From: Microbacterium sp.
Lineage (GTDB): Bacteria; Actinomycetota; Actinomycetes; Actinomycetales; Microbacteriaceae
Reading direction: 5' to 3'
DNA: 64,000 nt
Assembly: GCA_017306415.1 (NCBI GenBank)
Contig: JAFKIL010000005.1
Location: 1-64,000, forward strand
Part shown: positions 42,223 through 61,092 of the stretch, in pieces
Numbering within the stretch: the stretch's first letter is position 1
How the letters are laid out: every line of letters begins with the position of its first letter
The notes under the pieces: generated by a model
Told to the model about the DNA's origin: nothing
The model's input: only the letters and a program-made list of their open reading frames with translations
Databases searched by the model: none
Translations under genes and position numbers: made by a program

Positions 42223-42295
42223 TGTGCAGGAAATCGGAGATGTGCAGGAAATCGGATGCGGCGGGTGGATCGCGTCCGATTTCCTGCACATCTCC
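42221..42295 (+). repeat. Direct plus inverted repeat forming a 25-bp hairpin after iclR
   Basis: GATGTGCAGGAAATCGGA occurs at 42221-42238 and again at 42239-42256. Its complement stands at 42275-42292. The second and third copies extend into a stem of 25 pairs (42236-42260 with 42271-42295, one T-G) and a 10-base loop. The first copy overlaps the iclR stop. It can act as a terminator, and the extra copy allows an alternative pairing. Confidence 0.8.
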
Positions 42296-42447
42296 GCTGC
42301 GTTGCTCGCCCCATCCGGCGGCCACGCCGCCCATCGCGCACCTCGGTCCCACTGGTTGAGAATCCAGCGCGCCCCGGCCGCAGCATCCTGCCACGCTTGA
42401 CGGGACTGCCCTCGAGCCGCCTCGAGCGCCAGGTCGAAGGAGACCCC

Positions 42448-46403: not shown

Positions 46404-46501
46404 GTACCGTTCTCAGGATCGGCGGGCGGCGGGGGTGGTGGTGCTCGCATCATTCCGGGGGGTTCGGGGCGAGGGGGCGGGGGTGTTCCTGAGAACGGTA
46501 C
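46404..46501. repeat. 98-bp inverted-repeat element, copy 1
   Basis: Perfect 15-bp arms GTACCGTTCTCAGGA (46404-46418) and TCCTGAGAACGGTAC (46487-46501), extendable by one pair, around a 68-base G-rich interior. The same arms with the same 68-base spacing recur at 55621 and 57260. Lies between pcaC and the pcaI promoter. Confidence 0.9.
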
Positions 46502-46520
46502 GCCGAGCGCCGGAGAAGCC

Positions 46521-46583
46521 TGGACCGACCGCCGGCGCAACGCTATACTGTCCACAGGGCGGACATACGTTCGCACAGCGAAC
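46521..46583 (+). promoter_or_regulatory. pcaIJF promoter and palindromic operator
   Basis: TGGACC (46521-46526), 17 bases, TATACT (46544-46549) is a strong promoter. GTTCGCACAGCGAAC (46569-46583), a perfect 6-3-6 palindrome, lies just past the expected transcript start, where a repressor would block elongation. RBS GGAGGAA follows. An IclR-type PcaR is the likely binder. Confidence 0.72.
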
Positions 46584-46600
46584 ACAGTGGAGGAACCCGC

Positions 46601-47356
46601 GTGATCGACAAGACCGTTCCGGATGCCGCAGCCGCGGTCGCCGGAATCACGGACGGCGCGACCGTCATGATCAGCGGCTTCGGCCGCGCCGGGCAGCCCG
46701 TCGAGCTCATCGACGCGCTCATCGCGCAGGGCGCTCGCGACCTCACGATCGTGAACAACAACGCCGGCAACGGCGACGCGGGCCTGGCCGCCCTCCTCGC
46801 CAAGAAGCGCGTCCGCCGCATCGTCTGCTCCTTCCCCCGGCAGAGCGACTCCTGGGTGTTCGACGGCCTCTACCGCGCCGGCGAGATCGAGCTCGAGCTC
46901 GTGCCGCAGGGCAATCTCGCCGAGCGCATCCGCGCGGCGGGGGCCGGGATCGGCGCGTTCTTCACTCCCACCGGCGTCGGGACGGAGCTCGCCGACGGCC
47001 GCGAGCACCGGACGATCGACGGTCGCGAGTACATCCTCGAGTACCCGATCCACGCCGACTTCGCCCTGGTGAGCGGTTGGAAGGCCGACCGCTGGGGCAA
47101 CGTCGTCTACCGCGAGACGGCGCGGAACTTCGGCCCGATCATGACGTCCGCCGCGACGACCTCGATCGTCCAGGTCGACCAGATCGTGCCGCTCGGCGCG
47201 CTCGACCCCGAGTCCATCCCGACCCCCGGCATCTTCGTCGACCGCGTCGTGGCGGTGGGGGAGCGGCCATGGCTGCGCGACGACGTGTTCGTCGGCGGTG
47301 TCGACCTGGAGGGCCGGCCGCTGGCCGCGGCATCCGGAGCGGAGGAGAACCGATGA
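46601..47356 (+). CDS. pcaI: 3-Oxoadipate CoA-transferase subunit A
   Basis: 251 residues, CoA-transferase family I alpha subunit. With PcaJ moves CoA from succinyl-CoA to beta-ketoadipate. VMISGFGRAGQPVELIDALI and IVNNNAGNGDAGLAALL match PcaI. GTG start with GGAGGAA upstream. Overlaps pcaJ by four bases. Confidence 0.95.
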   Translation: MIDKTVPDAAAAVAGITDGATVMISGFGRAGQPVELIDALIAQGARDLTIVNNNAGNGDAGLAALLAKKRVRRIVCSFPRQSDSWVFDGLYRAGEIELELVPQGNLAERIRAAGAGIGAFFTPTGVGTELADGREHRTIDGREYILEYPIHADFALVSGWKADRWGNVVYRETARNFGPIMTSAATTSIVQVDQIVPLGALDPESIPTPGIFVDRVVAVGERPWLRDDVFVGGVDLEGRPLAAASGAEENR

Positions 47357-48042
47357 CCACCCGCATCCCGCGCGCCGAACTGGCCGCGCGCATCGCCGCC
47401 GACATCCCCGAGGGTTCGTACGTGAACCTCGGCATCGGCGCGCCCACGCTCGTGGCGAACTTCCTGCCCGCCGACCAGGAGATCATCCTGCACACCGAGA
47501 ACGGACTGCTCGGGATGGGGCCGGCCCCCGCGGCCGACCAGGTCGATCCCGATCTCATCAACGCCGGCAAGCAGGCCGTCACCGCCGTGGCCGGTGCCGC
47601 GTACTTCCACCACGCGGACTCCTTCGGGATGATGCGCGGCGGTCATCTCGACGTGTGCGTGCTGGGCGCGTTCCAGGTCTCCGAGCGGGGCGACCTCGCC
47701 AACTGGTCGACGGGCGAGCCGGGGGCGATCCCGGCCGTGGGCGGCGCGATGGACCTTGCGATCGGCGCGAAGGCGGTCTACGTCATGACCGACCTGCTCA
47801 CCAAGACCGGTGAGTCCAAGCTCGTCGCGGCGTGCTCCTACCCGCTCACCGGTGTCGGGTGCGTCACCCGCGTCTACACCGATCACGCGGTCTTCGATGT
47901 GACGCCGGAGGGCTTCGCCGTGCGCGAGGCGTTCGGCGACAACACCGTGGCGAGTCTCGCCGAGCTGACCGGCCTCGCGCTCGCCGGTGCGGATCCGACC
48001 GCGACGGATGCCGCATCCGCCGCATCCCCCGAGGAGGACTGA
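47353..48042 (+). CDS. pcaJ: 3-Oxoadipate CoA-transferase subunit B
   Basis: 229 residues. The active-site Glu49 lies in TENGLLGMG. YVNLGIGAPTLVANFL and the DLANWSTG segment are family-typical. A short Ala/Asp-rich tail precedes the stop, one base before pcaF. Confidence 0.95.
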   Translation: MTTRIPRAELAARIAADIPEGSYVNLGIGAPTLVANFLPADQEIILHTENGLLGMGPAPAADQVDPDLINAGKQAVTAVAGAAYFHHADSFGMMRGGHLDVCVLGAFQVSERGDLANWSTGEPGAIPAVGGAMDLAIGAKAVYVMTDLLTKTGESKLVAACSYPLTGVGCVTRVYTDHAVFDVTPEGFAVREAFGDNTVASLAELTGLALAGADPTATDAASAASPEED

Positions 48043-48043
48043 C

Positions 48044-49219
<1,176 letters not shown>

Positions 49220-49245
49220 GTCAGACCGGATCCGCGGGCGCCGCC

Positions 49246-49319
49246 CGCACAACTCCTGCACGACGCCCCGGCAGGAGGCGCACGCCCACCCTTCGCCGGG
49301 ACTCTGCAGGAGTGGTGCG
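49246..49319. repeat. 74-bp inverted repeat between pcaF and the third iclR
   Basis: ACTCCTGCA (49252-49260) pairs with TGCAGGAGT (49305-49313); after one mismatch, five further pairs extend the stem to 49246/49319. The interior is GC-rich with its own CCCCGGC/GCCGGG pairing. Same overall size as the unrelated repeat at 60957-61030. Confidence 0.7.
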
Positions 49320-49341
49320 CATCATCGGGGAGGATAAGGCA

Positions 49342-50130
49342 ATGACGATGAGCGAGAGCAGGGATGCCGCGGCATCCGCCGACTTCGTCCAGTCGCTCGC
49401 GCGCGGGCTCGCCGTCATCCGCGCGTTCGACGCCGACCACGCGGAACTGAGCCTCAGCGACGCCGCCCGGCGCGCCGGCATCCCGCGCGCGGCAGCCGGA
49501 AGGTTCCTGCGGACGCTCGAGACGCTCGGCTACGTCCGGTCGGACGGGCGGCTGTTCGCCCTGACCCCGCGCGTCCTCGAGCTGGGGTTCAGCTACCTGT
49601 CCGCGTTGTCGCTGCCGGAGATCGTGCAGCCGCACCTCGAGGCGCTGTCGCGCGAGGTGGGCGAGAGCGTGTCGTCCGCCGTGCTCGACGGCTCCGACAT
49701 CGTGTACATCGCGCGCGTCCCGACGCGGCGCATCATGAGCGTCCGCATCACGATCGGCACGCGCTTCCCCGCGTATGCGACGTCGATGGGGCGCGTGCTG
49801 CTCGCAGCGCTGCCGGAGGCCGCGGCCCGCGCGGCGGTGGAGGCATCCCGTCCGGATCACCTCACCGCGCGGACCCTGACCGACGTCGACGAGCTGCGTG
49901 CCGAGCTCGACCGTGTCCAGGAGCAGGGGTGGGCCCTCGTCGACGGCGAGCTCGAGCCCGGACTGCGGTCGATCGCGGCGCCGGTCCACGGTCGTGGCGG
50001 GCAGGTCGTCGCCGCCGTCAACGTGTCGACGAGCGCGACCCGCGACACCGTGGAGCACCTCACGCTCGAGCACCTCCCGCGCCTGCTCGCGGCGACCGCG
50101 GCGATCGACCGCGAGCTCGCGCTCGTCTGA
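49342..50130 (+). CDS. IclR-family regulator, PcaR-like
   Basis: 262 residues. Winged helix about residues 18-72 (LARGLAVIRAFDADHAELSLSDAARRAGIPRAAAGRFLRTLE) and ligand domain with SYLSALSLPEIVQPHLEALSREVGESVSSAVLDG, a PcaR/PobR-like segment. GGGGAGGAT precedes the ATG. Its place behind pcaIJF makes it the best candidate for the GTTCGC-N3-GCGAAC operator at pcaI. Confidence 0.9.
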   Translation: MTMSESRDAAASADFVQSLARGLAVIRAFDADHAELSLSDAARRAGIPRAAAGRFLRTLETLGYVRSDGRLFALTPRVLELGFSYLSALSLPEIVQPHLEALSREVGESVSSAVLDGSDIVYIARVPTRRIMSVRITIGTRFPAYATSMGRVLLAALPEAAARAAVEASRPDHLTARTLTDVDELRAELDRVQEQGWALVDGELEPGLRSIAAPVHGRGGQVVAAVNVSTSATRDTVEHLTLEHLPRLLAATAAIDRELALV

Positions 50131-50192
50131 CCCGACGAGGGCTGCACCCGGGCGGGCTGGGCAGCGCGTGCCGCGGCTGCGGCTGCGGCTGC

Positions 50193-50278
50193 GCCGGATG
50201 CCTCGACCCGCCGCTTCCCGCGGCGCCCTTCGGGCGTCGCCCGCCAGGCCCGACCAGCGGCGGGCCGAGGCATCCGGC
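50193..50278. repeat. 86-bp palindromic repeat, copy 1 (with partial tandem copy to about 50356)
   Basis: Arms of 22 bases (50193-50214 and 50257-50278), starting GCCGGATGCCTCG and ending GGCATCCGGC, one mismatch, enclose 42 bases with an inner CGCCC-TTC-GGGCG hairpin. A near-identical 86-bp copy is at 53569. The right half plus flank (about 57 bases, ending TGGCACGTTC) is duplicated in tandem at about 50299-50356. Intergenic between iclR and a convergent MFS gene. Confidence 0.85.
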
Positions 50279-50386
50279 TCCGCCTCGGTGGCACGTTCCG
50301 CCAGGCCCGAGCCGGCGGCGGGTCGAGGCATCCGGCTCCGCCTCTGTGGCACGTTCGGGTTCAGGGGGCGAACCGGCGCGAGGGGA

Positions 50387-51667
50387 TCAGCCGCGCGGGG
50401 TGCTCAAGGGGGCACGCCGCGCCAGGACCGCGCTCGCGGCTCCGGCCAGCAGCACGACGCCGGCCGACGTCACGGGCGCGATCATCGCGGCGGCGGTGCC
50501 CGACGTCTGGGCGAGCGCACCGACGAGGGCGGATGCCGCGGACTGCCCCACGATCACCGAGGACCCGAGCATCGTCATCACCGTGGCGGACCGGCCGAGC
50601 GGACTGTGCGCGGCGCCGAGGGTGTACTGGGTGACGAGCGTCGGACCGATGCCGATCCCGACGATGAACAGCGCGATCGCGATGCCGACGACGTCGTGCA
50701 CGAAAGGCAGCGCGGCGGTTCCGGCCACGAGCACGGCGGTGAACACCAGCCATCGCGCGTGCACGGTGAACCGGGCCGGGAACCAGGCGACGCCCAGCGC
50801 GAGCCCGGCGGAGCCGATGCCCATCACGCCGTAGACGAGACCGGCCTGCTCGGGAGCACCGAGGTCGGCCATGAACGAGGTCAGGGCGGTGAGCGTCGAG
50901 CCGAAGAACAGTCCCATGCCGAGGACGCCGACGGCGACGACGACCAGGGCGGGCCGGGCGAGCTGGCGCGCCGGCGCCTGCCGCACGACCGCGCGTCCGT
51001 CGACCCTGGCCACGGTCGCGCCGGTGCGGTGCAGGGCGAAGGCGGTCACGAAGACCAGGGTGAGGATCGCCGCGCCCACGATCGGGGCCGCCGGATTGAG
51101 TGTGGTCGCGAGCACGCCGACCAGGAACGGGCCGAAGACGAACACGATCTCATCGGCCGCGGATTCGTACGCCATCGTCCCGTTGAGCGTCGTCGCCCGC
51201 CGCTCGGCGGGCAGCATCCGGGTGATGACCCCGACCAGGCGACTGCGCGACATGGGGGAGACCTGCGGTGCCGTGGCCCCGATCACGAACGCGATCGCCA
51301 GCACCGCGAACGGCGATGCCGGGGTGTAGACGACCCACGCGATCGCGAGCAGCGCAAGACTGTTCGCGATGCCGGAGACGAGCATCACCGTCCGCTGGCC
51401 GACGCGGTCGGCCGCCGCGCCGATGAGCGGACCGAACACCGCCGTGCCGAACCCGATGAGCGCCGAGGTCAGGCCGCCGAGGGCGAGGTCGCCGCGCGCC
51501 GCCACGACGAGTGTCAGGACGCCGACCACCATCATGGCGAACGGGAACCGCGCCAGCAGCGCGATCGGGAAGTACGCGAAGCCGGTCGCGCGCACGAGCG
51601 AAGATTCGCGCGCCGGCGCATCCGTGCGGACGGTATCCGGGTCGTGGACCCGCGATGTGGTGCTCAC
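50387..51667 (-). CDS. MFS transporter
   Basis: 426 residues, about twelve helices (FAMMVVGVLTLVVAARGDLALGGL, GAAADRVGQRT loop, FVFGPFLVGVLATTLNP). The GTG at 51667 follows GGGAG. Resembles sugar or drug efflux MFS proteins; substrate unknown. Stands alone between repeats and the POT gene. Confidence 0.82.
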   Translation of the reverse strand: MSTTSRVHDPDTVRTDAPARESSLVRATGFAYFPIALLARFPFAMMVVGVLTLVVAARGDLALGGLTSALIGFGTAVFGPLIGAAADRVGQRTVMLVSGIANSLALLAIAWVVYTPASPFAVLAIAFVIGATAPQVSPMSRSRLVGVITRMLPAERRATTLNGTMAYESAADEIVFVFGPFLVGVLATTLNPAAPIVGAAILTLVFVTAFALHRTGATVARVDGRAVVRQAPARQLARPALVVVAVGVLGMGLFFGSTLTALTSFMADLGAPEQAGLVYGVMGIGSAGLALGVAWFPARFTVHARWLVFTAVLVAGTAALPFVHDVVGIAIALFIVGIGIGPTLVTQYTLGAAHSPLGRSATVMTMLGSSVIVGQSAASALVGALAQTSGTAAAMIAPVTSAGVVLLAGAASAVLARRAPLSTPRG

Positions 51668-51784
51668 TAGATCTCCCAAGGGGCGTCGTGCCGCCTTGGC
51701 GATCGGGGCTCTGCCGATCCGAGGTAGATACACGGGGTACGGCATCCATTCTCGCACGCCCTCCTGGGCGTCGCCGGGATGCGT

Positions 51785-53353
51785 CTAGCGGACACCCTTC
51801 ATCAGCGCGAGCACCGGCTTGGTCAGCAGCCACAGCACGACGCCGACGGCGATGGCGATGAATCCGAGGATCAGGAAGTACGGCACCTCGTCGTCGACGA
51901 CGAAGAACTGCGTGCACCACCCGGCGATGGAGGTGCCCATCGCAATGGAGAGGAAGAACAGGGCCACCATCTGGGTGTGGAACGCATCGGGTGCGAGCTT
52001 CGTCGTCACCGACAGGCCGACCGGCGACAGCAGCAGCTCCGCGACGGTGAACACGAACAGGATGCCGACGATCGCCAGCAGCGGCGTGGAATTCGCGCCG
52101 CCCCCGGAGAACGGCAGGAAGAGCAGGAAGGCCGCGCCCATGATGATCGCCGCCATCGAGAACTTGACCGGGGTCGAGGGCTGCCGCCTGCCGAGCTTCG
52201 TCCAGATCGCGGCGAACACCCCGGAGAGGATGATGATGAAGACGGGGTTGATCGACTGCACCCACGAGACCGGCATCTCCCAGCCGAAGATGCTCCGATC
52301 GAGCTTCTTGTCGGAGTAGATGGTGAGCACCGTGAACTGCTGCTGGTACAGCGACCAGAAGGCGACGCTGGTGAGGAAGAGCGGCACGAAACCCCAGACA
52401 CGCGACCGCTCGGTGGGCGAAAGCCGGCGGCTCGTCAGGATGACGACGAAGTACACCAGGGCGGAGACGGCGCTGACCGCGATCACGACCACGGCGAGGT
52501 TGTCCGGGCGGATGACGCCGGTGAGCACGAGGATGACGATCGTCACCAGACCGAGCACCCCGATGCCGATCACCGGCAGACGTCGGTTCGCGGGAAGGGG
52601 CTTCGGCACCTCGCGGGACTTGGCGGGCAGCTGCTTGCGCCCGAACGAGTACTGGATGAGGCCGAGCGCCATTCCGACGGCGGCGAGGCCGAAGCCCCAG
52701 TGGAAGCCGAGCTGCGTCTGGAGCAGCCCGGTCAGCAGCGGCCCGAGGAAGGCGCCGAGGTTGATGCCGAGGTAGAAGAGCGAGAACCCGGCATCGCGCC
52801 GGGGGTCCTCCGCGCTGTAGAGCGTCCCGACGACCGAGGTCGCGTTCGCCTTGAGGCCGCCCGACCCGACCGCGACGAGGATCAGGCCCACGCCCACGCC
52901 AACGAAGCCGGGCAGCAGCGACAGCGCGAGATGCCCGCACATGATGATGATCGCGCTGATGAACAGCACCCGCTCGGAGCCGAGCAGTCGATCGGCGACC
53001 CAGGCCCCGAGGATCGTGGACAGGTACACGGCGCCGCCGTAGGCGCCGACGATTCCCGCGGCGACGGTCTGGTCCATCCCCAGTCCGCCCTGCGTGGCCG
53101 AGTAGTACAGATAGATGAGCAGGATGCCCTGCATGCCGTAGAAGCTGAACCGCTCCCACATCTCCACGCCGAACACGTGCGCCAGCGCCCACGGCTGGCC
53201 GAAGAACCGGGTGTCGTGGTCGCCGTCTCCGGCGGTGCCGGCGGCGTCCGTGCCGCCGGCCGAAGCCGCCGATGCCGAGCCGATGCCGGCTGCCGTCGCC
53301 CCGTCGGGCGGGCCGACCGGGACCTCTTCAGGGGAGTCGCGTCCATCGCTCAC
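51785..53353 (-). CDS. POT/PTR family peptide transporter
   Basis: 522 residues, about fourteen helices. Proton-coupled di/tripeptide uptake. Signatures: EMWERFSFYGMQGILLIYL (proton-coupling ExxERF) near residue 64 and FSLFYLGINLGAFLGPLL. The N-terminal 45 residues are Gly/Ala/Asp-rich and disordered-looking. The GTG at 53353 is chosen because TAGCCT (53366-53361) lies seven bases upstream, the leaderless pattern seen elsewhere. Confidence 0.92.
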   Translation of the reverse strand: MSDGRDSPEEVPVGPPDGATAAGIGSASAASAGGTDAAGTAGDGDHDTRFFGQPWALAHVFGVEMWERFSFYGMQGILLIYLYYSATQGGLGMDQTVAAGIVGAYGGAVYLSTILGAWVADRLLGSERVLFISAIIIMCGHLALSLLPGFVGVGVGLILVAVGSGGLKANATSVVGTLYSAEDPRRDAGFSLFYLGINLGAFLGPLLTGLLQTQLGFHWGFGLAAVGMALGLIQYSFGRKQLPAKSREVPKPLPANRRLPVIGIGVLGLVTIVILVLTGVIRPDNLAVVVIAVSAVSALVYFVVILTSRRLSPTERSRVWGFVPLFLTSVAFWSLYQQQFTVLTIYSDKKLDRSIFGWEMPVSWVQSINPVFIIILSGVFAAIWTKLGRRQPSTPVKFSMAAIIMGAAFLLFLPFSGGGANSTPLLAIVGILFVFTVAELLLSPVGLSVTTKLAPDAFHTQMVALFFLSIAMGTSIAGWCTQFFVVDDEVPYFLILGFIAIAVGVVLWLLTKPVLALMKGVR

Positions 53354-53418
53354 GACGCCCAGGCTAGCGGCGGGCGGCCTCGCGGTGCCGGAAGCGCGGG
53401 TGTGTGCGGGGGCGCCGG

Positions 53419-53560
53419 GCCGGGGGCAGCGCGCTTCGCGCGGCTGGGGCAGCGGGCTGGGGGCAGCGGGCCGGGGGGCAGCGCGCTTCGCGCGGCTGGG
53501 GCAGCGGGCTGGGGGCAGCGGGCCGGGGGCAGCGCGCTTCGCGCGGCTGGGGCTGCGGGG
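53419..53560. repeat. Three tandem copies of a 51-52 bp G-rich unit
   Basis: The word GGCAGCGCGCTTCGCGCGGC recurs from about 53424, 53476 and 53527, each within a longer unit continuing TGGGGCAGCGGGCTGGGGGC. Each carries a GCGCG-CTT-CGCGC mini-hairpin. The tandem runs directly into the second copy of the 86-bp repeat. No plausible gene covers it. Confidence 0.8.
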
Positions 53561-53568
53561 GCGGCTGC

Positions 53569-53654
53569 GCCGGATGCCTCGGCCCGCCGCATCCCGCGGC
53601 GCCCTTCGGGCGTCGCCCGCCAGGCCCGGCCGGCGGCGGGCCGAGGCATCCGGC
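53569..53654. repeat. 86-bp palindromic repeat, copy 2
   Basis: Perfect 22-bp arms (53569-53590 and 53633-53654) with the same 42-base interior as copy 1 at 50193, differing at only a few positions. Sits between the start of the POT gene and the stop of the DHA2-type gene. Confidence 0.88.
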
Positions 53655-53715
53655 TCCGCCTCCGTCGCTCTGCAGGATGGGCCGGCGCCGGCGCCGGCGC
53701 CGGGCTGCGGGCGGC

Positions 53716-55158
53716 TCAGTCCGGGAGGGACGGATGCCGCTCCTGCGGCGCGCGACGGCTTGGGATGAACAGGGCGACCACGAACGCTACGACCGCGGCG
53801 AGCCCACCGAGGATGAACGACAGCTGGAACGCCCACGGCGTCGGCACCTGCACGCCGCCCTGCTCGACCACGTAGGTCGCGAGCACGGCCGCGACGACCG
53901 CGGCCGCGATGCTCGTGCCCAGGGAGCGGAACAGGGCGTTGAGGCCGTTGGATGCGCCGGTCTCGTTGGGCGGGACCGAACGCATGATCAGCATCGGCAT
54001 CGACGCGTATCCGAAACCGATGCCGACGCCGATGAGGATGTTCGCCACGACCAGGTGCCAGACCTCGCTGTGCCAGACGATCGTGAAGGCGTACGAGACG
54101 ATCAGCGCGAGGGAGCCCGCCAGGAGCAGCACGCGCGGCCCGATCCGGTGCGCGATCCGGCCGGACACCGGCGAGAGCAGCATCATCACGAGCCCGGACG
54201 GCATCACGACGAGGCTCGCACCCAGGAGCGACAGCCCGAACCCGGTGCCGGTGGCCACCGGCAGCTCGAGCATCTGGGGATAGAGCACGTTCGATCCGAA
54301 GAGCGAGAACCCCATCGCCACCGAAGCCAGGTTCGTGAGCAGCACGGGGCGGCGGGCCGCGACCCGCAGGTCCAGCAGCGGGTCCTTCGTGCGCAGCTCG
54401 TACCAGCCCCAGAGCAGCAGCACCGCGATGCCGCCGAGCCCGCACCCCAGGACGGCGGGTGACGCCCAGCCCCACTGGTCTCCGCGGGACACGGCCAGCA
54501 GAAGCCCGAGGAGCCCCAGGCTGAGGCCCACGGCGCCGACGAGATCGAAGCGTCCGGCCGTGCGCAGCACGCTCACCGGCACGATCCACAGCACGAGTGC
54601 GAAGACGACGGCCCCGAGTCCGGCCGCGAGCCAGAAGAGGACGTGCCAGTCGCTGTACTGCGCGACGATCGCGCTGATCGGCAACCCGATCGCGCCTCCG
54701 ACGCCGAGGGTGGCGCTGATGAGGGCGATGGCGGCATCGACGCGGTCCTCGTGCAGCACATCCCGGAGGATGGCGATGCCCAGCGGCACCACGCCGACGA
54801 TGGCGCCCTGCAGCGCGCGACCGACGATGACACCGATGATGCCGGGAGACAGGGCCGCGATGACCGAGCCCAGGACCATGATCGCCACGAGCGCCAGGAC
54901 GATCCGGCGCTTGCCGTACATGTCGCCGAGTCGCCCGGCGATCGGCGTGCTCACCGCCGCGGCGAGCAGTGTGGCCGTCACGACCCAGGCGGTGTCGTCG
55001 CGGTCGGCGTGCAGCAGCTCCGGGAGCTTCGCCTGGATCGGCACGACGAGCGTGAACATGAACGACGACGAGAGACCCGCGAACGCGAGGACCGCGACGA
55101 TGGCGCCCTGTCGAGGCATCCGGGTGAGGCGTCTTCGTCCGTCCTCGCCCTGTCCCAT
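53716..55158 (-). CDS. MFS transporter, DHA2 (14-helix) type
   Basis: 480 residues, about fourteen helices. Motif regions DDTAWVVTATLLAAAVSTPIAGRLGDMYGKRRIV (motif A) and GRALQGAIVGVVPLGIAILRD (motif B/C) identify a drug-export type MFS. TAGCCT (55170-55165) is six bases before the ATG, so probably leaderless. No adjacent regulator. Substrate unknown. Confidence 0.88.
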   Translation of the reverse strand: MGQGEDGRRRLTRMPRQGAIVAVLAFAGLSSSFMFTLVVPIQAKLPELLHADRDDTAWVVTATLLAAAVSTPIAGRLGDMYGKRRIVLALVAIMVLGSVIAALSPGIIGVIVGRALQGAIVGVVPLGIAILRDVLHEDRVDAAIALISATLGVGGAIGLPISAIVAQYSDWHVLFWLAAGLGAVVFALVLWIVPVSVLRTAGRFDLVGAVGLSLGLLGLLLAVSRGDQWGWASPAVLGCGLGGIAVLLLWGWYELRTKDPLLDLRVAARRPVLLTNLASVAMGFSLFGSNVLYPQMLELPVATGTGFGLSLLGASLVVMPSGLVMMLLSPVSGRIAHRIGPRVLLLAGSLALIVSYAFTIVWHSEVWHLVVANILIGVGIGFGYASMPMLIMRSVPPNETGASNGLNALFRSLGTSIAAAVVAAVLATYVVEQGGVQVPTPWAFQLSFILGGLAAVVAFVVALFIPSRRAPQERHPSLPD

Positions 55159-55208
55159 GGGCTCAGGCTATCGGTCGGCGCATAGGGTCAGACGCTTACG
55201 TTGACCTC

Positions 55209-55709
55209 GTGCTGCCCTCCCGTCGTGCTCTCGCCTGGCTCACCGGATGGATGCTGACCGGCTTCGCCGTCGCCGTCGCCGTGCTCCCGTTCGTGTGGGA
55301 CTCGTGGCCGGCGTGGGTGCTCCCGGCCGTGCTGACGGTGTTCGCGACGTCGGTCGCGGGGCCCCTCCTGATCGGCGGGTGGATGCTCGGCCGGGCGGTC
55401 GCTCCCGCGGGCGGCGTCGTCGGGTTCGTGTTCGCCCTGGGGATGATCGCGGGGCCGGCGGGCCAGGCCGTCGACGTCCCGTGGGTGATGTGGGCGGGCT
55501 ACGCGGGCCTCGTCGTGGCGCTCGTCGGACTCGTGCTGCTCGGGCTGCGGAAGCGGATCGCGCGCGCGTCGCGGCGACGGACCGCGGTGCGCCGCGCGCG
55601 GCGCGAGGCGCGCCTCGCCCGTACCGTTCGCAGGAACGGCGGCGCGGTCCGGGGTGAGGATCCCCGCGGAACCGCCGCGCGTCGGGGCTCGACCGACCAG
55701 AGCTCCTGA
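55209..55709 (+). CDS. Small membrane protein, unknown function
   Basis: 166 residues from a GTG at 55209. Four hydrophobic helices (about 8-28, 36-58, 66-84, 92-112) are followed by an Arg-rich tail. The last 30 or so residues and the stop are encoded by the 98-bp repeat copy 2, so the natural C-terminus may have been altered by that element. I do not recognise the family. Confidence 0.65.
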   Translation: MLPSRRALAWLTGWMLTGFAVAVAVLPFVWDSWPAWVLPAVLTVFATSVAGPLLIGGWMLGRAVAPAGGVVGFVFALGMIAGPAGQAVDVPWVMWAGYAGLVVALVGLVLLGLRKRIARASRRRTAVRRARREARLARTVRRNGGAVRGEDPRGTAARRGSTDQSS

Positions 55710-55718
55710 GAACGGTAC
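55621..55718. repeat. 98-bp inverted-repeat element, copy 2
   Basis: GTACCGTTCGCAGGA (55621-55635) and TCCTGAGAACGGTAC (55704-55718), one mismatch, around a 68-base interior. Outward pairing extends to CCC/GGG. The interior has its own strong stem (GGCGCGGTCCGGGG with CCCCGCGGAACCGCC). Overlaps the 3' end of the membrane-protein gene and supplies its stop codon. Confidence 0.88.
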
Positions 55719-55755
55719 GGGTCGCGCGGCTGACGTGCGGTGCCAGACTGGCTGC

Positions 55756-56469
55756 ATGGCCGACCTGACTTCCGCGCCGCACATCGAGATCCGGCCGCTC
55801 GCGACCGTCGAGGAGGTGTTCGCGGCATCCGAGGTGCTCTCCGTCGTATGGGGCGGAGACCGCAGCGGGATGCCGCCGAATCTCCTGCGCGCGCTGGCGC
55901 ACTCCGGCAACTACGCCGTCGGCCTGTGGGCGGACGGGCGCATGGTCGGGGCGTCCGTCGCGTTCTTCGCTCAGCCGTCCGCGCGTTCGATGCATTCGCA
56001 CATCACCGGGCTGCTGCCGGAGTTCCGCGCGCACGGCTTCGGGCGGGCGCTCAAGCAGCACCAGCGGGAGTGGGCCTTCGCGCGCGACGTCGGGCACATC
56101 ACGTGGACGTTCGACCCGCTCGTCGCCCGCAACGCCCACTTCAATCTGCGCGTGCTGGGCACCCGCGTCACGGAGTACCTCGTCGACCAGTACGGCCCGA
56201 TGGACGACGGTGTGAACCGCGGTGACGAGTCCGACCGGCTGATGGTGTCCTGGGCCCTCGCGGCGCCTCCCGCACCCACGCCCGCGGACTCCGCCGTGAT
56301 CGCCGCCGTCGAGATCCCGGCAGACATCGAGGCGCTGCGGCTCGAGTCGCCGGCGGATGCCGCGGCCTGGCGCCATCGCGTGCGCGACGGGTTCCTCCGC
56401 CTGCGGGGCGAAGGCCTCGTCGTGGGCGGCTTCGACGACGCGCGCGGCTACCTGTTCGTTCGTCCCTGA
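55756..56469 (+). CDS. GNAT-like acetyltransferase domain protein
   Basis: 237 residues. HITGLLPEFRAHGFGRALKQHQREWA (near 75-100) has the acetyl-CoA-binding R/QxxGxG/A character of GNAT enzymes (FRAHGFGRAL). ITWTFDPLVARNAHFNLRVLG follows, as in a group of uncharacterised actinobacterial proteins. CAGACT (55744-55749) is six bases before the ATG. Substrate unknown. Confidence 0.75.
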   Translation: MADLTSAPHIEIRPLATVEEVFAASEVLSVVWGGDRSGMPPNLLRALAHSGNYAVGLWADGRMVGASVAFFAQPSARSMHSHITGLLPEFRAHGFGRALKQHQREWAFARDVGHITWTFDPLVARNAHFNLRVLGTRVTEYLVDQYGPMDDGVNRGDESDRLMVSWALAAPPAPTPADSAVIAAVEIPADIEALRLESPADAAAWRHRVRDGFLRLRGEGLVVGGFDDARGYLFVRP

Positions 56470-56547
56470 CCGGGTTGGCGGTCGAACGGCGAGGCGTGGC
56501 AGACGCGCGCCACTCGGCGCCGGGGTCGCCGTCCTAGGCTGTGCGGC

Positions 56548-57228
56548 ATGCCCGAACGCCGCATCGTCGATCTCTCGCACCCGATCCGGGCGGGGCTCGT
56601 CACCTACCCCGGCCTTCCCGCGCCGACGATCACGCCGCACCTCACCCGCGAGGACTCCCGGGCGCGCTACGCACCCGGGACCGAGTTCGCGATGGACATC
56701 ATCACGATGATCGGCAACACGGGCACCTATCTCGACTCGCCGTTCCACCGCTACGACGGCGGTGCGGATCTCGCCGGGCTCGACCTCGCGACACTCGTGG
56801 GGCTGCCCGCCGAGGTGTTCCACCTCCAGGATGCGTGGGGTCCGGATCGCCGTGGCATCCGTGCGGAGCAGCTCGCCGACCGGGATGTGCGCGGCGCGGC
56901 CGTGCTGCTGCACACCGGCTGGGACCGTCTCTTCGGCGCGCCGGAGTACGGCACGGGTGCGCCGTACCTGACCGAGGACGGCGCCCGCCGGCTGATCGAC
57001 GCCGGCGCGGCCCTGGTCGGCATCGACTCGCTGAACATCGACGACACCGAGTCGGGTGGCGAGCGTCCGGCGCACACGCTGCTCCTCGCGGCCGGCGTCC
57101 ACGTCGTCGAGCACCTCACCAACCTCGGCGCACTTCCGCCGCGCGGTGCCCGGTTCACGGCCGCTCCGCCCGCGGTGGAGGGCTTCGGCACCTTCCCGGT
57201 CCGGGCGTTCGCCGAGCTGCCGGCCTGA
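56548..57228 (+). CDS. Cyclase family protein (kynurenine formamidase-like)
   Basis: 226 residues. Family motif region reads GNTGTYLDSPFHRY (near 56-69) where active members usually have HxGTHxDxPxH. The first metal-ligand His is Asn and the second is Tyr, while Asp and the last His remain. A hydrolase with an altered metal site, or a non-formamidase subgroup. TAGGCT (56535-56540) is seven bases before the ATG: leaderless. Confidence 0.82.
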   Translation: MPERRIVDLSHPIRAGLVTYPGLPAPTITPHLTREDSRARYAPGTEFAMDIITMIGNTGTYLDSPFHRYDGGADLAGLDLATLVGLPAEVFHLQDAWGPDRRGIRAEQLADRDVRGAAVLLHTGWDRLFGAPEYGTGAPYLTEDGARRLIDAGAALVGIDSLNIDDTESGGERPAHTLLLAAGVHVVEHLTNLGALPPRGARFTAAPPAVEGFGTFPVRAFAELPA

Positions 57229-57259
57229 GGCGGCGGCCGCTCACCAGCGCGCTCGCGGT

Positions 57260-57357
57260 GTACCGTTCTCAGGACCGACGGGGTACTGCAGCCGAGCCGG
57301 CCGCGCAGATACGGGCGAACCGCGTCCGCTGCGGCACGCCACTCCTGAGTACGGTAC
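57260..57357. repeat. 98-bp inverted-repeat element, copy 3
   Basis: GTACCGTTCTCAGGA (57260-57274) and TCCTGAGTACGGTAC (57343-57357), one mismatch, around a 68-base interior unlike that of copies 1 and 2. It ends 14 bases before the -10 of the next gene. Confidence 0.88.
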
Positions 57358-59607: not shown

Positions 59608-60924
59608 ATGAGCACCGTCGCTCCCCGTGATCCCGCTGCGGCGCGGGGCATCTCCCGCCGCACGCAGTCCGACATCTACCGCGCCGGCATCGCCGGCACC
59701 CGCCCCCGCGTGCCTGTCGACCCCGACGCGCTCGAGACCGCCGCGCGTCGCGCCCTGAGTGCCGAGGCCTTCGCCTACGTCGCCGGCGGCGCCGGAGCCG
59801 AGCGCACCGTGGCGGCGAACCGCGCGGCCTTCGCGCGCTGGCAGGTGTGGCCGCGGCCGCTGCGCGACGTCGCCGAGCGCGACCTGTCCGTCGAGTTCCT
59901 GGGCGTCCGGCGGCCCACGCCGCTCCTGCTCGCGCCGCTCGGCGTGATGGAGCTGGCTCACCGCGACGCCGACGCCGCGGTGGCGCGGGCCGCGGCATCC
60001 TCGGGCGTGCCGTACACGCTCAGCACTCAGGCATCCGTCCCGATGGAGGAGGTGCGGGATGCCGCCCCCGACGGCGCCCGGATGTTCCAGCTCTACTGGT
60101 CGGCGTCGGACGAGCTGAACGCGTCGCTGCTGCGGCGGGCCGAGGCATCCGGCTGCGAGGCCATCGTGATCACGCTCGACACGCACCTGCTCGGCTGGCG
60201 CACGCGCGACCTCGACCTCGCCTACCTCCCGTTCACGCGCGGGCTCGGGATCGCGCAGTACACGAGCGACCCGGTCTTCCAGCAGCTCGTCCGGGAGCGG
60301 GCGGGCGCCGCGCGCGGACCGGCGGAGGCGGTGCGCCTGACGCCGAAGACCGTGGCCGCGGGGATCAGCATCGCGCGCAAGGGCGGGCCGCTGACGGGCG
60401 CGAGCCTGCGCGAGAACCTCCGCTCTCCGCTGCCGCGGGCGGCGGTCGAGACGTTCCTCGACGTGTTCTCGACGCCCGCCCTCACGTGGGAGATGCTCGC
60501 GAGGGCGCGGGAGTGGACGAGCCTCCCGATCATCCTGAAGGGCATCGTGCACCCGGACGACGCGTCGCGCGCGCTCGACGCCGGTGTCGACGGCGTCTGG
60601 ATCTCCAACCACGGCGGGCGCCAGCTCGACCAGTCCGTGCCGACGCTCGCGGTGCTGCCCGAGATCGCGGACCGCGTCGCCGGGCGGGTGCCCATCGTGT
60701 TCGACTCCGGCGTGCGGGGCGGCGCGGACGCGTTCATCGCCCTCGCGCTCGGGGCGACGATGGCGGCACTCGGCCGCCCGTACGCGTACGGGCTCGCCGT
60801 CGCGGGGGAGCAGGGGGTCGCCGAGGTGATCCGCAACGTGGTCGCCGAGCTCGACATCACCCTCGGCCTGTCCGGTCACACCGCGATCGCCGACGTCGAC
60901 CGGGCGGCGCTGCGCGAGGCGTGA
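59608..60924 (+). CDS. FMN-dependent alpha-hydroxyacid oxidase / lactate 2-monooxygenase-like
   Basis: 438 residues, longer than usual (about 390) because of an N-terminal 25 or so residues and an insertion around 215-270. [21 protein letters not shown] opens the domain; the catalytic His and Arg are in [10 protein letters not shown] near residue 337; [19 protein letters not shown] binds phosphate. Oxidises lactate or a related 2-hydroxyacid. TAGGCT (59596-59601) is six bases before the ATG: leaderless. Confidence 0.88.
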
Positions 60925-60956
60925 CAGCGAGCCGCTCACGGCACCGCGTCGGGCGA

Positions 60957-61030
60957 AACTCCACGGATCCGATCGCGCCCACGCTCATTCGGGCGAAGAA
61001 CCGCGACCTGCCGGACGTATCCGTGGAGTT
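60957..61030. repeat. 74-bp inverted repeat between the oxidase gene and glyS
   Basis: AACTCCACGGAT (60957-60968) and ATCCGTGGAGTT (61019-61030), twelve perfect pairs around 50 bases. Same total length as the repeat at 49246-49319, and both arms contain ACTCC/GGAGT. Confidence 0.75.
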
Positions 61031-61092
61031 CTGCACACGTTCCGATCGAGCCGCGGGCCCGGGTCGGGCGGGATCGCCCGGGGAGCCGCCGA

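What the first reader, a model, noticed from the sequence alone, without database searches (positions are those of the whole stretch)
46404..57357. Three 98-bp elements with conserved 15-bp arms and a fixed 68-bp unconserved interior
GTACCGTTCTCAGGA...TCCTGAGAACGGTAC occurs at 46404-46501, 55621-55718 and 57260-57357. The arm-to-arm spacing is exactly 68 bases in all three, yet the interiors are unrelated. Conserved ends with conserved length but free sequence suggest selection on geometry (a protein bridging two sites about eight helical turns apart, or an RNA stem capping a loop) or a non-autonomous mobile element. Each lies between co-oriented genes just upstream of a promoter. I do not know a named element like it.
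Basis: seen in the sequence. Interest (0 to 1): 0.85.

Follow-up and report, generated by a model that had tools for sequence, protein, structure and literature searches.

The report
Paired-arm repeats with their own nuclease
The three elements belong to a family of short, mobile-looking DNA repeats scattered through one bacterium's genome, whose two ends are held at a fixed distance and whose likely partner is a DNA-cutting protein gene that is itself bracketed by copies of the repeat; relatives carry their own versions with different end sequences.

Summary
The genome has 32 paired elements (family 1). Arm offsets are 71-72 (7), 82-84 (24) and 93 (1), i.e. steps of about one helical turn. 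The interior is not wholly free: a short AT-containing motif sits at its centre.

The decisive find lies outside the window. A gene for an AbiEi-like DNA-binding domain fused to a Vsr-type nuclease is bracketed by these elements. A second, apparently truncated, gene of this kind in the same genome is bracketed by, and accompanied by, 19 elements with unrelated arms. Of 63 such nuclease genes examined in the same class, 34 have a strict paired-arm element within about 420 bp; 47 of 125 flank windows are positive, against 1 of 150 same-locus controls. In 27 loci elements on both flanks could be paired; their spans agree within 1 bp in 25, although most interiors have diverged. Recent copies match inside the element and not beyond it.

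This looks like a REPIN/RAYT-type system built on an unrelated nuclease; no RAYT was found (0 of 8 genomes). Binding, cutting and copying are inferred, not shown. Ten full-text searches of open-access papers turned up no description.

The parts
46404..46501 (.). Family-1 element, two perfect 15-bp arms, 68-bp interior, centre motif ATCATTCCGG at 46449-46458
46404..46418 (+). left arm GTACCGTTCTCAGGA
46487..46501 (-). right arm, inverted
55621..55718 (.). Family-1 element, left arm with 1 mismatch, right arm perfect, 68-bp interior
57260..57357 (.). Family-1 element, left arm perfect, right arm with 1 mismatch, 68-bp interior; relative G047 has 4 bp between the BLAST-matched flanks where this genome has 150 bp
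60951..61036 (.). Family-2 element (arms GTGCAGAACTCCACGGAT; left arm 3 mismatches, right perfect; offset 68), belonging to a different nuclease paralog at G000:C4:356.0-356.6 kb
42235..42296 (.). Possible family-3 element: arms resemble those beside a third nuclease paralog (L244, G000:C7:164.4 kb), same 52-bp offset of the shared 14-mer
   Evidence: 3 window matches vs 0.49 expected; 4 of 100 shuffles reach 3, so weak alone

Best explanation
These are short, dispersed, REPIN-like elements of a two-component system. Component 1 is the element: two inverted arms at a fixed distance (steps of a helical turn), a free spacer and a short centre motif. Component 2 is a cognate protein gene elsewhere in the genome, bracketed by copies of the element: an N-terminal AbiEi-like winged-helix DNA-binding domain joined to a C-terminal Vsr/EDxHD-type nuclease domain (Pfam MTES_1575/DUF559). 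Nuclease paralogs have their own arm sequences. SHOWN by sequence: dispersed pairs, quantised spacing, bracketing of the gene, private arms, centre motif, recent copies alike only across the element. INFERRED: two or more protomers bind the two arms on the same face of the double helix and bring their nuclease domains onto the element; nicks or cuts there lead to copying of the element as a discrete unit (for example through repair of a long staggered break, which would also explain why the gene sits between direct copies of the element). Arms stay conserved because the protein must read them; the interior drifts because only its length and centre matter.
For: 32 paired elements, 64 of 67 near-perfect arms paired. 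Offsets 71-72/82-84/93 in family 1; family 2 67-68 (18) and 80 (1); from the listed places, G582 67 (10) and 76-77 (8), G572 66-68 (47 of 47). The 17 off-mode elements fit a 10.5-bp period best of nine tried (mean cosine 0.80; 10.0 and 11.0 are close at 0.77 and 0.76). Nuclease gene bracketed in G000 (3 elements) and Agromyces bracchium (both sides), and with an element overlapping its 3' end in Microcella alkaliphila and its relative G445. Second G000 paralog bracketed by a different family with 19 copies. Survey: strict paired arms in 47 of 125 flank windows of 63 genes (34 genes either side, 13 both) against 1 of 150 same-locus windows, 0 of 63 inside the genes, 5 of 209 windows in genus relatives; one shuffle of each window gave 0. 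Arm of one flank refound in the other 40 of 47 times, reversed-arm control 0 of 47. With relaxed arms, both flanks paired in 27 of the 35 loci with any element; spans equal within 1 bp in 25 of 27, including 17 of the 19 whose interiors are under 65% identical in direct orientation. Dispersed families also in G572 (55+53 arm hits), G582 (20+21) and G591 (4 elements, offset 55), genomes of other families in the class. Discrete copies: in L055, L238, L230, L244 and L243 the two copies are 80-97% identical inside and 25-50% in the 40-bp flanks, with 0-6 shared bases just outside. Orthologous element in Microbacterium sp. Leaf288: flanks 81% identical, arm cores identical, interiors both 68 bp between cores but only 56% identical after gapping (shuffled mean 50%). 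Domains: MTES_1575 and DUF559 matched in 10 of 10 proteins; PADLOC AbiEi models in 6 of 7 at E 0.001 or better; Vsr-type acidic and His residues invariant; PDB 3hrl E 1.6e-8 and 3r3p E 0.019.
Against: No binding, cleavage or transposition was observed. No target-site duplication in family 1. 29 of 63 nuclease genes show no strict element, so bracketing is common but not universal, or my detector is too strict. Many domain matches are weak: over Pfam's own cut-off are only 1 of 10 for MTES_1575 and 8 of 10 for DUF559, and the family-1 protein passes neither; one of 7 proteins shows no AbiEi match. The family-2 gene is an open frame of 207 residues lacking the N-terminal domain, with a stop in the matched upstream stretch, so that enzyme may be broken; its family is also the more decayed (17 of 38 paired arms perfect, against 57 of 64 in family 1). 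Arm similarity tracks protein similarity only weakly (Mantel rho 0.08, p 0.046). One tandem pair (L005) shares 24 bp beyond one arm. A hydrolytic nuclease has no obvious strand-joining activity, so copying would need host repair. The structure model was too poor to use (pLDDT 39).
Confidence: 0.72

Rival explanations
1. Dispersed operators: the AbiEi-nuclease protein is a regulator or chromosome-architecture protein and the elements are its looping sites; the bracketing copies are autoregulatory operators.
For: AbiEi proteins bind inverted repeats and autoregulate (abstract of PMC7319586). Helical phasing fits looping.
Against: 14 of 32 lie between convergent genes and only 7 between divergent ones. 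Elements lie on both sides of the gene in 27 loci. Copies behave as discrete units. The strict family-1 pair is in this genome and one other of 59 genus genomes.
Confidence: 0.13
2. RNA or single-stranded hairpins (terminators, stabilisers, or ssDNA transposition intermediates).
For: Arms pair; whole window elements fold better than shuffles (z -3.6 to -6.2). Two elements carry the same change on both arms: L257 in family 2 and one in G017.
Against: Interiors alone z about -0.1. 7 of 7 mutated family-1 arms uncompensated. Convergent, co-directional and divergent settings alike. Spacing steps are those of duplex DNA.
Confidence: 0.05
3. Ordinary REPINs moved by a RAYT (HUH/Y1 transposase), or MITEs of an undetected insertion sequence; the nuclease is a passenger that tends to sit beside such repeats.
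For: Anatomy is very REPIN-like (PMC3116915, passages seen).
Against: No Y1_Tnp in any of 8 genomes tested, control genomes positive. Arms differ between nuclease paralogs yet recur on both sides of each. No TSD, interiors not shared. Other transposase families were not searched for.
Confidence: 0.08

Closest known systems
REPIN / RAYT systems (REP doublets with REP-associated tyrosine transposase; PMC3116915 and PMC3733652, passages seen)
   Same: Two inverted conserved ends, favoured spacings (71 bp for GI doublets in P. fluorescens SBW25), less conserved spacer, extragenic, enzyme gene flanked by its repeats, separate families tied to separate enzymes.
   Different: Enzyme is an AbiEi-wHTH plus Vsr-type hydrolytic nuclease, not HUH/Y1; no GTAG tag in the four families compared; spacing classes one helical turn apart; centre motif; arms apparently read as duplex DNA.
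TIRtrons / TIRYTs (RAYT-like genes flanked by terminal inverted repeats; PMC3733652, passages seen)
   Same: Enzyme gene flanked by inverted repeats that can form moderately abundant families.
   Different: Enzyme is again a tyrosine (HUH) transposase.
EDxHD / Vsr-like homing endonucleases (PDB 3r3p 'mobile intron protein'; EDxHD family named in the search listing for PMC6083498; that 3r3p is I-Bth0305I is recalled)
   Same: Related nuclease domain by sequence (3r3p E 0.019).
   Different: No intron or intein seen; the gene does not interrupt its own site but lies between intact copies of the element; dozens of non-coding copies.
AbiE type IV toxin-antitoxin, AbiEi antitoxin (PMC7319586, abstract and outline)
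   Same: AbiEi-like N-terminus; AbiEi is known to bind inverted repeats.
   Different: C-terminus is a nuclease; neighbours at the G000 locus are a tRNA synthetase and a GNAT acetyltransferase, no AbiEii toxin.
Vsr REase domain MTES_1575 (PMC3710099, passages)
   Same: Same nuclease domain family, named from Microbacterium testaceum.
   Different: There described inside a large HEPN/helicase protein; no repeats mentioned in the two passages seen.

Membership tests
REPIN/RAYT | Two inverted conserved ends with variable spacer, dispersed | tested here: met
REPIN/RAYT | Cognate HUH/Y1 tyrosine transposase in the genome | tested here: not met
   0 of 8 genomes for PF01797, positive in 5 of 14 control genomes
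REPIN/RAYT | GTAG tetranucleotide at the REP end | tested here: not met
   arms begin GTAC, GTGC, GATC, CGAA in the four families compared
REPIN/RAYT | Enzyme gene flanked by the repeat | tested here: met
   met with a different enzyme
MITE of a DDE insertion sequence | Target-site duplication | tested here: not met
   family 1, 18 tests, lowest p 0.01
MITE of a DDE insertion sequence | Copies share interior sequence | tested here: not met
   only some local or gene-flanking copies do
MITE of a DDE insertion sequence | Parental transposase with the same ends | not tested
   no genome-wide transposase scan was run beyond PF01797
EDxHD/Vsr-like homing endonuclease | Vsr-type nuclease fold and catalytic residues | tested here: met
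   by sequence only
EDxHD/Vsr-like homing endonuclease | Gene interrupts its own recognition site | tested here: not met
   paired elements on both sides in 27 loci
EDxHD/Vsr-like homing endonuclease | Gene lies in an intron or intein | not tested
   no intron or intein search was run
AbiE type IV toxin-antitoxin | AbiEi domain | tested here: met
   6 of 7 proteins at E 0.001 or better, weak for most
AbiE type IV toxin-antitoxin | Adjacent AbiEii toxin gene | tested here: not met
   the two neighbours at the G000 family-1 locus only; other loci not examined
RNA hairpin / terminator | Compensatory change in arms, structured interior | tested here: not met
   two elements with the same change on both arms are exceptions

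The most novel reading that the evidence does not exclude
A previously undescribed class of mobile or domesticated DNA system, widespread in this bacterial class: a Vsr-type nuclease guided by an AbiEi winged helix reads two inverted arms on one face of the helix and copies miniature elements through a long staggered break repaired by the host, with each nuclease paralog owning a private arm code.
Probability: 0.5. Interest if true: 0.93.

Novelty: categorically new. Interest (0 to 1): 0.86.

Why it matters
REPINs with RAYTs are the model for nuclease-plus-miniature-repeat populations in bacteria. A second system of the same logic, with a non-homologous, hydrolytic enzyme and duplex geometry, would show that this lifestyle evolved more than once. 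It would suggest a function for a common gene family (matched in 82 of 148 genomes sampled across the class). The many paralog/arm pairs also form a natural library for learning how a winged helix reads DNA, and possibly a compact site-directed nuclease needing two phased sites.

Tried and rejected
RAYT (PF01797) search: none in 8 genomes. RNA reading: interiors unstructured, little compensation. TSD test: none. Single-sequence structure prediction of the Agromyces protein was too poor to use or search with. Arm-versus-protein Mantel test: weak. Look-alikes from the named-genome scan were set aside: Muproteobacteria RBG_16_65_34 (AGGATTAACAGGAT arms) and Viridilinea halotolerans share TTCTCAGGA in what look like different repeats; I judge most other single hits to be chance, untested. 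Viral contigs: 4 hits, none with the Microbacteriaceae-type outer arms. Plasmid search for an empty-site ortholog of the element-containing methyltransferase locus: the 10 listed of 57 records matched only the neighbouring lipoate ligase gene. The printed comparison of L238 and L230 was out of register; one search repeats it in register. The gene caller is home-made. Nuclease loci were not a random sample: loci returned hand-picked stretches and three earlier loci; 4 of 73 had no profile match and were dropped, duplicates reduced 69 to 66, and 3 below 90 bits were dropped to give 63. The strict detector missed the known elements of L064 and L131.
Full report
WHAT IS THERE. The three 98-bp elements are real. 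The window is the first 64 kb of contig C10 in a 3.76-Mb, 13-contig genome, G000. The genus is Microbacterium by inference: G019, listed as same genus, has a contig of the same length (155,529) as the M. yannicii PS01 record. The 15-bp arm occurs 67 times with at most one mismatch, 59 times perfectly; the reversed pattern gives 3 at up to two mismatches. 64 of the 67 form 32 pairs, all facing inward; three lie in one crowded cluster. Start-to-start offsets are 71 (2), 72 (5), 82 (2), 83 (19), 84 (3) and 93 (1). So the length is not fixed but falls in classes about one helical turn apart.

THE INTERIOR. The interiors are mostly free but not wholly so. In the 83 class a symmetric motif, roughly CnCGGnATTCCGnGG, sits at the midpoint (19 elements). 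The 72 class shows CGACACGCCG or a close form there, and the same decamer recurs in Agromyces elements. The arms extend inward weakly (C at position 16 in 55 of 64 arms). Interiors of 30 elements fold no better than dinucleotide shuffles on either strand.

WHERE THEY SIT. By a home-made gene caller 28 of 32 are intergenic; of all 32, 14 lie between convergent, 11 between co-directional and 7 between divergent genes. One of the four overlaps is genuine: the element at C10:169300 is translated in frame in a DNA methyltransferase-like gene (it holds LIYLDPPFNTG; the name is recalled from the motif), and Microbacterium sp. Leaf288 has an element at the same place. There the flanks are 81% identical and the arm cores identical, the outermost arm bases differ, and the interiors between cores are both 68 bp but only 56% identical after gapping, near the shuffled mean of 50%.

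DISTRIBUTION OF FAMILY 1. The strict pair is in this genome (26) and one other (1) of 59 genus genomes. A shorter core is in 5 of 398 family genomes, this one included; G445 has 8 copies, three others one each. Named carriers from one scan of the 84,980-genome collection are Microcella alkaliphila, M. putealis, three Agromyces, M. yannicii PS01, three other Microbacterium and one unnamed Microbacteriaceae; I judge many other single hits to be chance. Their core spans are 74-76 or 84-87, the same phase. G019 keeps one perfect pair, one pair with a mismatched arm and two more arms; only some of its 13 nuclease matches were looked at, and none of those has family-1 flanks.

THE PARTNER GENE. Three family-1 elements bracket one gene at C4:378.7-379.5 kb. 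It encodes 277 residues: an AbiEi-like N-terminus (PADLOC E 8e-5) and a Vsr-type nuclease C-terminus (MTES_1575 E 1e-7, below Pfam's cut-off). Elements flank homologous genes in Agromyces bracchium (both sides) and overlap the 3' end in G445 and Microcella alkaliphila. That prompted an inverted-repeat scan around 12 further paralogs: 11 of 12 had an inverted pair of at least 14 bp nearby, with different arms.

THE SECOND FAMILY, A REPLICATE. The paralog at C4:356 kb in the same genome has arms GTGCAGAACTCCACGGAT. At up to three mismatches these occur 44 times in G000 (control 1) and 1, 4 and 5 times in three relatives. They form 19 elements, 16 at offset 68, 2 at 67, 1 at 80. One lies in the window at 60951-61036. 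This nuclease is only a 207-residue open frame without the N-terminal domain, with a stop in the upstream match, so it may be broken. Its family is the more worn: 17 of 38 paired arms perfect, against 57 of 64 in family 1. A possible third-family element lies at 42235-42296.

THE SURVEY AND ITS CONTROLS. A profile of the nuclease matches 82 of 148 genomes across the class at E 1e-10. Of 63 unique genes (selection told in Tried and rejected), 34 have a strict paired-arm element on at least one side and 13 on both: 47 of 125 flank windows. Controls: 1 of 150 windows further away in the same loci, 0 of 63 inside the genes, 5 of 209 in genus relatives, of which two (CGCACAAC arms) resemble arms seen beside nucleases, and none in one shuffle of each window. 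The arm found on one side recurs on the other in 40 of 47 cases, the reversed arm in 0 of 47. Allowing imperfect arms, both sides can be paired in 27 of the 35 loci that have any. The two spans agree within 1 bp in 25 of 27; the exceptions differ by 12 and 19 bp. In 19 of the 27 the interiors are less than 65% identical in direct orientation, and 17 of those 19 still agree in span. I regard this as the strongest evidence for selection on length. 29 of 63 genes show no strict element; I cannot say whether they lack one or have degraded arms, and the strict detector also missed the known Microcella and Agromyces cases.

OUTSIDE THE FAMILY. In G572 the arm CGAAGTAGCACACAA occurs 55+53 times and in G582 20+21 times at up to two mismatches, controls 1-2 per strand; two non-carriers gave 2 and 4. 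From the listed places, 47 G572 elements have offsets 66-68 and 18 G582 elements have 67 (10) or 76-77 (8); 6 of 100 and 5 of 41 listed arms were unpaired. G591 has 4 elements, all at 55. Five of five offset-67 G582 elements read share CACGCTCA near their centre, and the four G591 elements an AT-containing core.

EVIDENCE OF COPYING. In the tandem pair at C11:596 kb (L055) and in the pairs that bracket nucleases in L238, L230, L244 and L243, the copies are 80-97% identical over the element and 25-50% in the 40-bp flanks, with 0-6 identical bases just outside; where interiors are recent the two gene-flanking copies are in direct orientation. A second tandem pair (L005) shares 24 bp beyond one arm, so it may be a plain local duplication. 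I found no target-site duplication for family 1. G047 lacks the 57260 element (4 bp against 150 bp between matched flanks), but it is too distant to show the exact junction.

HOW IT MIGHT WORK. AbiEi proteins are known to bind inverted repeats (PMC7319586, abstract and outline seen). I infer that the AbiEi-like domain reads the arms, that two bound proteins must face the same side of the duplex, which explains steps of 9-12 bp, and that the nuclease domains act on the element. Nicks on opposite strands near the two arms would give a long stagger whose repair duplicates a whole element; that would produce both tandem copies and the element-gene-element layout. This last step is speculation. The catalytic residues are conserved among the 13 aligned proteins, so I expect active enzymes in general.

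COMPARISON AND NOVELTY. It works like REPIN/RAYT, whose defining enzyme and GTAG tag were tested and not found, so it is not a member. It shares a nuclease domain with EDxHD homing endonucleases but not their layout. Ten searches of open-access full text turned up no description of these repeats or of their link to this gene family in the listings; subscription journals are mostly missing and preprints mostly not held. I rate it categorically new because no known family that I tested matches both components; a reader who defines the kind by lifestyle alone could call it a new variant of the REPIN kind.

Noticed in passing
window 50193-50278, 50315-50334, 53569-53654, 60132-60151: A different repeat: arms CGGATGCCTCGRCCCGCCGC with a conserved, GC-rich interior (86-bp inverted pair twice, plus single arms). 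15 window matches at up to 3 mismatches against 0.36 expected. Its interior is shared, unlike the elements reported.
   Followed up: partly
L048:3301-3398 and L098:350-450: An element translated in frame inside a DNA methyltransferase-like gene, at the same site in this genome and in Microbacterium sp. Leaf288.
   Followed up: partly
L080, L081, L090, L119, L122, L123: Candidatus Muproteobacteria RBG_16_65_34 has several elements with long arms built of AGGATTAACAGGAT; somewhat similar ones appear in Parabacteroides (L109) and Saprospiraceae (L133).
   Followed up: no
L088, L101, L116: Candidatus Viridilinea halotolerans has paired arms TTTGTTTCTCAGGAGC at spans 78, 91 and 90.
   Followed up: no
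L084 vs L002: A contig of the MAG Actinobacteria bacterium 69-20 is 100% identical over 2,950 bp to this genome's C3 region, suggesting a misbinned contig or the same strain.
   Followed up: no
L076, L077, L078, L087, L131: Agromyces bracchium elements are directional: an extra internal TTCTCAGGA copy (or close form) and CGACACGCCG-like motifs between the outer arms.
   Followed up: no
L169:1180-1803 (G000:C4:356.0-356.6 kb): The nuclease gene of family 2 looks truncated at its N-terminus while its 19 elements show more arm changes than family 1.
   Followed up: partly
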